From: Pseudomonas sp. B21-028
GTDB lineage: Bacteria > Pseudomonadota > Gammaproteobacteria > Pseudomonadales > Pseudomonadaceae
Length of the DNA: 64,000 nucleotides
Direction: 5' to 3'
NCBI RefSeq assembly: GCF_024749045.1
Contig: NZ_CP087184.1
Location: 4,092,001 to 4,156,000, forward strand
Positions 29,575 through 35,583 of the stretch are shown here, piece after piece. Position 1 is the first letter of the stretch; every line of letters begins with the position of its first letter. The notes below the pieces were generated by a model, which was not told where the DNA came from, did no database searches, and saw only the letters and a program-made list of their open reading frames with translations. A program made the translations under genes and the position numbers.

Positions 29575-32500
29575 CTATTCCTCCAGTAATGTGATGCAAA
29601 TATTATCGAAATCTATAGTGTGAGGAGCGATTTCTACTGGCTTTGGAATGCTTAGTAAAAGACGGACGTTCCATATTTTTGTCGTGGTAAAACTATAAGA
29701 ATAATCCCGCCAATCAGTTGACTCGATTATGAATACTTTCTCAGCCACCACCGTACTTAGCCAGCTTTCATTAGAGTTGACGCTAGAGCCCAGCTTTGCC
29801 CCAGAAATAGAGCTGCGTGCACGGAGGCTGACCTCATATGTCCTGTTCCTGAGCAAATCAATCGTGGGGAGGAGTTTAATGATATAGAGATAAGGGGAGT
29901 ATATTCTCCCATAGTAGTTACCACCCTCCGACATAATATCGAAGAGGCGTCGATGCGGTTCCCCCTCAAAACTACCGGCAGTCCATCCATCCTTATCTCC
30001 GTTATCGAAATGTGTGCACTGGTGCCAGAGAACAACCTTTAAAGTGCGCACGTTCGAGTAGACCGGGTTGACTGAATAGAGCGCCTTGGCATACAGACGG
30101 CGGGCACCGACGGTCACGGTAATATCTCTGGTCCAGATGCCCGTGTCGGCATCGGCGGTCGCCTCGCCCTTGAGTACAGCGCTACTTCCGCTCCCCTCGT
30201 AAATTTCGACCTTTTGCCCTTTACTGGCTTGACCCGAGAGTTTCAAGGTGAGGCTGCTGGTTGCACGGCCCTCTAGGACTTCAAGACCGCCGGTGTCTTT
30301 CACGCTGTCTAGGGTTGGGGTCATCAGAGCGACAGCCTTGACGATATAGGTGCGCGGCGGAAAGGTCACCGCCTCGGCCTCGTCATGACTCTGGTTGAAG
30401 GAGGCCTTGAACTCTATTCTCAGCGTGCTGCCGTCGCGTAGCTCCCGCAATTCGTTGTAGGGGACGACTTTTTCACCGTAGCCTTGTAGATACCACTCCG
30501 TGCTCACCCAATTACTCGTTCCGCTCCATACTTTCTCGTAAAACGAGCCATTGGCCTTTATGCCCTCCAGGCGTAACCATATGCGTTGGTTATGTGCAAT
30601 AAGCGGCCAACTATCGATACGCACAGTGGCGTCACGGACCATGTTGCTAACATCTAGCTCAAGTCCTTCGCCATTATTAGCGGCCTCGAGGATTCGAGGC
30701 TTGGCTACCAATAGATCGTTCTCGGCGATCGTCTGAACTGTCAGGTTGAGTGCGGCTGACGGATCGGATTCATTGCCATTGCGCGTCACCGTGTAGGTCA
30801 CCGTCACCGACCGGCCCAGGTTAAAGGCGATCACACTGACCGGGATGACGATCTCACGATTGGGGGGCAGTGTTTGCACCGGAGTGGTGTGGGAGCCCGC
30901 CCCTGCAGTGCCGGCCCACGTCACGCTGACCTGATCGCCCGGCTGGACGCCGTAGTCCGGAATCACCACGGTCAGGGCATCCTTGGCCGCCACCGGATTC
31001 AGTTGCTGGGTCGGTGAGCTGCCTGTGGCTTGCTTGACACTGGGCGCAGTCAAATCCATCCCCGCACCAATGCTCATCAGCAGCGTTTCTGACGGACTGG
31101 TCCCACCTACAACCCGCCTCACCCAATACATCGCTCGCACCGTGCCATTACGGTTGCCCTCGATCAGCGCGCCACTGATGGTGAACGGGATGTCCTGGTT
31201 CTCGGTCACTTCAGTGACCGGAAGCGAATCCCGATACCGGCCGGTTATCGACCCCCACCACAAGATATGCACTTGGTCGCCGGCCTTTTGGCCGTTGTAT
31301 TGGCGAACGATCAGACGCGTGCCATTTGGCTTGTCCGCCGGGTCCAGGACCCCGTCGCTCTCCCCTTCGACCACCGGCGGTGGCAATTCAGCCTGAGGGA
31401 GGCCGATAGTCAGCAAGTCGGCGTGCAGCGATTCCTCTTCGATGACTTCCCGGCTCACTGCATCGCGCAACAGCATGTAATACAGATCCAGCGTCCCGCC
31501 TTCAATGGCGGTGAGGTGCTCACCCGCCACGACGATTTCAATCGGTACGCTGCCCTCCGCTTCGTTCTTGCTGAGCGGATGCAGGAGCAAGTCCGGTGTA
31601 TAAGAGCTGCCGCTCTCGGTCGTACCGGTCCAGATCAACGCAATGGCATTGCCCTCTTCCATGGCCGGGTCCAGCGGGATCTCGATGGTGGTACCGGGCA
31701 GTTGGGGATCGAGGGTGCCGGCGATCTCGTCCAGGGGGATCGGGGCCGCCAGGGGATTGGCCCGGCCGACGATCCGCGGGGAGAATACTTTGGAGGTCAG
31801 GTCACCACTTCCGTCCGCCTTGATCAGACGATAGAAAAAAGCCGCATGGAGACCGCCGGCCAGCTGGCGCACCTCGGCGCTGGGACGTTTGAATTCGGTG
31901 ATGCCCGATGCGTTTGTAATCACCTCTGGCGGATAAACTTTCTCTATCCGTTCACCGCTCGCGGTGAGTCCCGACAAGCTCATTTCGATCTCGTCGCCCA
32001 CCGCAAAGTCATTGCCCAACGTAAAGACCTGGAAGGTCAGGTCTGCCTCACCGAGCTGGTCCATATCCAGCACCAGATTGACCGTCTCCTTGATCAGCGG
32101 CGCCAGCAAGCGCGAGTTGCCGGTGTCCACGATCACCCGCACTTCGGCACTCCAGTCTGCGGATTTGTTGTCCACCACGTCATAGACTTCAAACACCACC
32201 GCCAGTCCATTGGTATCGGTGTCCCCGGCCGTGAGAATGGTGGCTTCATCGACGGTGATCACCAGGGGCGCATTCTGCGGCGGCAGATGCTGTGGCTCGA
32301 CAGTGGCCCAGATGATTTCGCCGCCCCAGGACAACTTGATCCGGTCCCCTTCGGCCATGATCGGGTAAGGCTCGATGGTCACCGGAACACCCTGCCTGGC
32401 GGCATCCTGGTCCACCGCGTCGGGTGGCAGGAACGGGGTCGTCAGTTTCAGTTCGGAGTGGCCGGGTGTTGTTCCGTCCAAGTCCGGGCCACCGGGCGGG

Positions 32501-35583: not shown

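What the first reader, a model, noticed from the sequence alone, without database searches (positions are those of the whole stretch)
29575..35583. Two Ig-like repeat genes fused head to head, both without 5' ends
Seen: the minus-strand frame makes family sense only from 32850 downward, and the plus-strand frame only from about 32848 upward. The upstream ~315 and ~58 codons of the two open frames are antisense shadows of each other. The plus copy starts in mid-domain (YPGMKGGDHLKLVW), the minus copy at a domain start (VPEPIIKEAS). Each has a different C-terminal domain, so they are two paralogues that lost their N-terminal parts. Inference: a deletion or inversion joined them, perhaps an antigenic or toxin-type shuffling locus with silent C-terminal cassettes.
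Basis: partly seen in the sequence, partly recalled or inferred. Interest (0 to 1): 0.72.

Follow-up and report, generated by a model that had tools for sequence, protein, structure and literature searches.

The report
Two broken divergent adhesin-like genes
Two neighbouring genes for long, beaded surface-type proteins, which face away from each other in a close relative, have here lost their front ends and shared switch region and been stitched together back to back with a small flipped scrap between them: most likely an accidental gene-breaking rearrangement, not a shuffling machine.

Summary
In detail: the minus frame makes family sense only from about 32850 downward, the plus frame only from about 32848 upward, and both genes lack 5' ends. 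The type strain of Pseudomonas mediterranea (L074) carries the locus intact: gene B (-) and gene A (+), 225 bp apart with two palindromic operator-like sites between them. Relative to it, 1363 bp (B's N-terminus, the intergenic region, A codons 1-268) and 133 bp of A are missing here, and the 298 bp between them (A's third Ig-like domain) survives inverted, in frame with B. So the first 98 codons of the 'minus paralogue' are a flipped piece of the plus gene. Each join shares 2 bp; the second makes the palindrome at 32844-32853. The missing DNA is nowhere else in this closed genome, apart from an 86-bp promoter/start piece at 29337-29422. Related proteins with intact N-termini exist. No recombinase nearby, no strong repeats at the joins and no close spare copies were found, so a shuffling locus is not supported. 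A second head-to-head join of 5'-less Ig-like genes lies at 4.8188 Mb.

The parts
29575..32556 (-). Gene B remnant: from about residue 104 of the intact P. mediterranea protein P0003 to the stop; B's N-terminus, start codon and promoter are gone
   Evidence: 98% to P0003 residues 104-1096; 30557-32556 matches L074 7437-9442 at 88%; no internal stop
32552..32849 (-). Inverted 298-bp piece of gene A (its Ig-like domain 3), joined in frame to B on the minus strand
   Evidence: 98% to L074 11103-10806; 98 codons align to A residues 269-366 of CFBP 5447
32848..35583 (+). Gene A remnant: residues 417-1327 of the intact protein P0042; the C-terminus has a Big_2 domain and an intimin-like tip
   Evidence: 97% to P0042; L074 from 11237 on; no gaps or internal stops, dN/dS 0.138; intimin match
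32844..32853 (.). CGGGTACCCG palindrome formed by the join of two TACCCG-containing sites of gene A; shared TA
   Evidence: sequence; junction comparison
32551..32557 (.). First join (B to inverted A domain 3), 2-bp overlap TC
   Evidence: junction comparison
32851..33795 (-). Antisense shadow part of the minus ORF (315 codons), not a gene
   Evidence: family similarity stops at 32856
32674..32847 (+). Antisense shadow part of the plus ORF (58 codons), not a gene
   Evidence: family similarity starts at 32845
29337..29422 (-). Relic of a B-type promoter and start codon (operator palindrome at 29402-29417), downstream of B's stop; perhaps the leader of a lost tandem B gene
   Evidence: 93% to L074 9771-9856
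35658..38060 (-). Neighbour: pertactin-type autotransporter, open frame
   Evidence: Pfam PF03797, PF03212; 98.8% to CFBP 5447
38251..40212 (-). Neighbour: open frame with no Pfam match, distantly related to the next one
40317..42341 (-). Neighbour: open frame with no Pfam match, with an operator palindrome at 42405-42420

Best explanation
The ancestor had two intact, divergently transcribed genes for multi-Ig-domain, probably surface or secreted proteins: B (-) and A (+), with a shared intergenic region that holds two palindromic operator-like sites. In the lineage of this genome a deletion-inversion-deletion event removed B's N-terminus, the intergenic region and A's domains 1-2 on one side and 133 bp of A on the other, and left A's domain 3 flipped between the two stumps. 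The joins share only 2 bp each, as expected for template switching at a stalled replication fork or microhomology end-joining; the hairpin-forming operator region is a plausible stall site. Both genes lost promoter region and native start, so both are most likely dead. Shown: the structure and its derivation from the intact state. Inferred: one event rather than two, the molecular mechanism, and the loss of expression.
For: An intact B/A pair with the same flanking genes in CFBP 5447. The four breakpoints of the event map cleanly (window/L074): 32556/9442, 32552/11103, 32849/10806, 32848/11237. L074 9443-9770, 9857-10805 and 11104-11236 give no match in the closed genome. Overlaps of 2 bp, TC and TA. 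Intact N-termini in the representatives of clusters P0042 (27 member sequences), P0003 (2), P0004 (5) and P0007 (15); I saw the representatives only. Intact divergent pairs also in L075 and L044. The operator region folds, as single-stranded DNA, better than all 200 shuffles, z -3.05. The A remnant is free of gaps and internal stops with dN/dS 0.138 against CFBP 5447, so the damage looks recent. Precedent in E. coli: inversions with small deletions or insertions at their ends ascribed to template switching at secondary structures (PMC3161906, passages read).
Against: CFBP 5447 differs by about 5-6% in the flanks, so the 2-bp overlaps are read against a relative and not the true parent. The in-frame fusion near the end of an Ig-like domain is not explained by a single random event. 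The 86-bp promoter relic at 29337-29422 and the different 3' part of B (29265-30351) are not explained by this event. I had no reads and no second strain with the same joins; the structure rests on one assembly.
Confidence: 0.8

Rival explanations
1. Two steps, given the same intact ancestor (so this odds figure is a share of the best explanation's structure, not exclusive of it): an inversion first exchanged the N-terminal parts of A and B in frame at matching ends of Ig-like domains, giving two chimaeric full-length genes; a later deletion removed the new 5' ends.
For: A domain 3 is joined in frame to the end of B's domain 1 at what looks by sequence like the same loop (read by eye), which a random join would give only rarely. 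An imperfect 22-nt inverted repeat (73%) links two of the four breakpoint regions (L074 9431-9452 and 10787-10808).
Against: A search with residues 1-190 listed 29 proteins; by listed identity and coverage I recognised none as such a chimaera, but I did not align all 29. It needs two local events. The DNA at the first join shares only 2 bp.
Confidence: 0.25
2. Programmed antigenic or phase-variable shuffling locus with silent cassettes.
For: B C-termini differ between strains and related copies; P0003 shares mid-protein variants with the 4.8-Mb copy, as gene conversion would give (read by eye).
Against: No recombinase gene of two families near, no strong repeats at the joins, no donor 5' module and no close second copy of either C-terminus in the genome.
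Confidence: 0.03
3. Sequencing or assembly artefact (chimaeric molecule or misjoin).
For: Inverted pieces with short overlaps are typical of amplification chimaeras (recalled); among the 81, 65 and 29 protein hits I recognised no other case of the fusion (in only 7990 and 7992 best candidates were scored).
Against: Single-contig genome, completeness 100, contamination 0.21. A misjoin by an assembler would need a longer repeat than the short ones found at the joins. The missing DNA is absent from the whole assembly, not misplaced.
Confidence: 0.07
4. The stumps are still expressed as shortened proteins from internal starts and are under selection.
For: Both frames are open; the A remnant has dN/dS 0.138 and an ATG as fourth codon.
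Against: The intergenic region with its operators and the native starts is gone from between the stumps; the low dN/dS can reflect the time before the break.
Confidence: 0.08

Closest known systems
Complex inversions made by template switching in starving E. coli (PMC3161906, passages seen)
   Same: Inversion with small deletions or insertions at the ends; short-overlap joins in the complex events; secondary structure proposed as the stall site
   Different: There found in a laboratory amplification assay near lac; here natural, in a divergent gene pair, with larger deletions, and seen only as its product
Intimin/invasin adhesins (1f00, 2zqk, 1cwv)
   Different: The Pfam scan of the intact A protein P0042 gives only Big_2 and no outer-membrane barrel; long N-terminal Ig-like array instead
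Invertible shufflons and phase-variable loci
   Same: An inverted coding segment between two partial genes
   Different: No recombinase nearby, no strong repeats at the joins, flanking DNA lost and not stored

Membership tests
Microhomology-type deletion-inversion-deletion | Retained piece inverted, flanked by deletions on both sides | tested here: met
   298 bp inverted, 1363 bp and 133 bp missing relative to L074
Microhomology-type deletion-inversion-deletion | Joins with only a few bp of shared sequence | tested here: met
   2 bp (TC) and 2 bp (TA), read against a relative 5-6% diverged
Microhomology-type deletion-inversion-deletion | Single replicative event | not testable with these tools
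   Only the end product is available
Shufflon / site-specific phase variation | Recombinase gene at or near the locus | tested here: not met
   Nearest PF00589 match at 3953083-3953520, about 170 kb away; only PF00239 match at 2619014; other recombinase families not searched
Shufflon / site-specific phase variation | Inverted repeats at both ends of the flipped segment | tested here: not met
   Exact inverted matches at most 7 bp between the two breakpoint zones of the first join and 5 bp for the second; an imperfect pair touching two breakpoint regions is 22 nt at 73%
Shufflon / silent-cassette system | Alternative modules stored in the genome | tested here: not met
   No close second copy of either C-terminus or of the lost 5' parts, except an 86-bp promoter piece
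Intimin/invasin family | N-terminal outer-membrane beta-barrel | tested here: inconclusive
   Pfam scan of intact A (P0042) gives only Big_2; the database's precomputed list adds PF26182 and PF26918, whose names I did not see; the N-terminus was not folded
Intimin/invasin family | Lectin-like C-terminal tip after Ig-like domains | tested here: inconclusive
Polymorphic toxin | C-terminal toxin domain and immunity gene | tested here: inconclusive
   No toxin family in the Pfam scans of six family proteins; immunity genes not searched

The most novel reading that the evidence does not exclude
Operator-centred collapse: the two head-to-head joins of Ig-like genes that I found in this genome (4.1248 Mb and 4.8188 Mb) both lack the 5' ends of both partners, as if palindromic operators between divergent adhesin-like genes were recurrent breakage sites that silence two genes at once and create chimaeras.
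Probability: 0.12. Interest if true: 0.5.

Novelty: new member of a known kind. Interest (0 to 1): 0.3.

Why it matters
It turns a puzzling head-to-head fusion into a readable case of one rearrangement disabling two divergent surface-type genes, with an intact relative as reference. It also points to a large Pseudomonas family of Ig-like repeat proteins with variable C-termini, a recurring neighbourhood and a shared operator-like palindrome, for which my few literature searches showed no description in their listings.

Tried and rejected
Shuffling locus: rejected for lack of recombinase, strong repeats and stored modules. Same lesion in other strains: not recognised among the 81, 65 and 29 protein hits (the first two scored only the best 7990 and 7992 candidates); DNA of a near relative was reached only for CFBP 5447 (a draft genome), L075 and L076 being more distant. 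Close relatives by DNA in 144 genomes: 9 with a match, own genome included, and none outside it better than E 2.9e-12, so no further orthologous locus. Plasmid search with 32000-33700: no match. Reading of 103 loci with family hits for other head-to-head joins of 5'-less genes: only the two in this genome (list read by eye); many of those loci have 1.5-kb flanks and several are overlapping fetches of the window's own locus, so this is weak evidence of absence. Papers: no paper held both 'Pseudomonas mediterranea' and 'Ig-like', and none held 'ctgacag', 'lux box' and 'pseudomonas'; the hits were seen as listings with abstract starts only, except PMC3161906 (passages). Structures: alignments used 23 of the 65 hits for A and 21 of the 81 for B. 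The minus remnant has mean pLDDT 69.6 and its first 130 residues are poor, so nothing is concluded about the chimaeric domain; its Foldseek list gives only general likenesses to many-domain beta proteins. Foldseek for A likewise; the VIA-align second look is used only for the C-terminal tip. P0003 against solved structures: no match.

Full report
Observation. The window lies in a closed 6,493,931-bp genome. Its flanks are about 94-95% identical to P. mediterranea CFBP 5447, so it is that species or a near sister; NCBI labels the closest B protein, P0003 (98%), as P. mediterranea.

The intact state. CFBP 5447 (L074) has the same neighbourhood: an RND pump gene (+), B (-, 6014-9775, 1253 aa), 225 bp of intergenic DNA, A (+, 10001-13972, 1323 aa), then the autotransporter and two further genes. 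Divergent intact B/A pairs also occur in L075 (QS1027) and L044. In L036 and L037 A and B lie in tandem, and in L039 and L042 they also lie on one strand, so divergence is not universal.

What happened. Against L074 the window reads: B up to 9442; then 11103 back to 10806, inverted (98%); then A from 11237 on. Missing are 9443-10805 (1363 bp) and 11104-11236 (133 bp). A DNA search of the whole genome with L074 9400-11300 gave five matches: the three retained pieces, an 86-bp piece (9771-9856, at window 29337-29422) and a 27-bp operator match at 5.98 Mb. The joins overlap by TC and TA; the CGGGTACCCG palindrome is a product of the second join. The 3' part of B differs from CFBP 5447 (no match for 29265-30351 except the 86-bp piece) but is shared with P0003.

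Both stumps look recently broken. Over 911 codons the A remnant has no gap or internal stop and dN/dS 0.138 against CFBP 5447; a 601-codon block of B gives 0.22. Intact N-termini are seen in the representatives of clusters P0042 (27 sequences), P0003 (2), P0004 (5) and P0007 (15). Among the 81, 65 and 29 database hits I recognised none with the fusion.

Mechanism. Deletion-inversion-deletion with 2-bp joins fits template switching or end-joining. In E. coli, inversions with small deletions or insertions at their ends were ascribed to template switches at secondary structures (PMC3161906, passages seen). The deleted intergenic region folds as single-stranded DNA better than all 200 shuffles (z -3.05), a plausible but unproven stall site. 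Against a single event: the in-frame join at an apparently equivalent loop, and a weak inverted repeat at two breakpoints (73%), leave room for an earlier in-frame inversion.

Not a shuffling system. No integrase-family match nearer than about 170 kb, one resolvase about 1.5 Mb away; no strong repeats at the joins; no close second copy of either C-terminus in the genome (the best other match to the A remnant is 32% identical and stops at residue 862 of 911). C-termini do vary: B ends in a CBM_4_9-like stretch here (below Pfam's cut-off) and has Big_2 and another end in P0007. Neighbouring locus tags in P. kielensis (ACEI36_16280, 16285) and P. brassicacearum (CD58_12085, 12090, 12100) suggest tandem arrays (names).

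What the proteins are. The family is widespread: 45 of 59 sampled genomes of the genus, own genome included, match the A remnant at E 1e-3 or better; 27 of 398, own included, match the B remnant at 1e-100 or better. The model of the A remnant (mean pLDDT 84.8, pTM 0.37) is a string of beta domains whose C-terminal part resembles intimin's tip (rows for unrelated proteins on other parts of the model score nearly as high). No intimin-type barrel shows in the Pfam scan of the intact protein. An adhesive surface or secreted role is inference.

A second join. At 4.8188 Mb (L032) a B-like gene starts abruptly at its domain 4 and abuts, head to head, a 115-bp copy (83%) of the 3' end of gene X, a 527-aa open frame whose full copy follows. 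The draft genome of CFBP 5447 gave no match for this arrangement beyond its own B gene and 50 bp elsewhere. Among the loci read (103 with family hits, many short and redundant), only these two, both in this genome, are joins of 5'-less genes. This is the basis of the bolder reading, held at 0.12.

Operator. CTGTCA-N4-TGACAG lies upstream of family genes: 42 of 55 N-termini have a site with up to 2 mismatches, 33 an exact one, and 35 of the 42 have one listed 72-106 bp before the approximate start; a backward control gives 0 of 55 (the 55 include the window and some overlapping fetches, and divergent pairs share sites). This genome has 19 exact sites and 0 for the control. Not all 19 sit before family genes. 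It resembles a LuxR-type box (recalled, not tested).

Noticed in passing
L032 10835-10967 (G000 4.8188 Mb): A second head-to-head join of two 5'-less Ig-like genes (B-like copy from domain 4, and the 3' end of an X-type gene); not matched in the draft genome of CFBP 5447.
   Followed up: partly
window 29402-29417 and 42405-42420; 19 sites in G000: Palindrome CTGTCA-N4-TGACAG upstream of 42 of 55 family N-termini (up to 2 mismatches), 0 of 55 for a backward control; LuxR-box-like by recall.
   Followed up: partly
window 29337-29422: Promoter and start codon of a B-type gene left downstream of B's stop, followed at once by unrelated DNA; may be the leader of a lost tandem gene.
   Followed up: partly
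window 35658-42341: The pertactin-type autotransporter and one or both of the two genes beside it keep company with A/B-type genes in L039, L042, L045 and L075 as well.
   Followed up: partly
L035 8635-12639: An A-type gene in another Pseudomonas genome (G045) is split by a single in-frame TGA.
   Followed up: no
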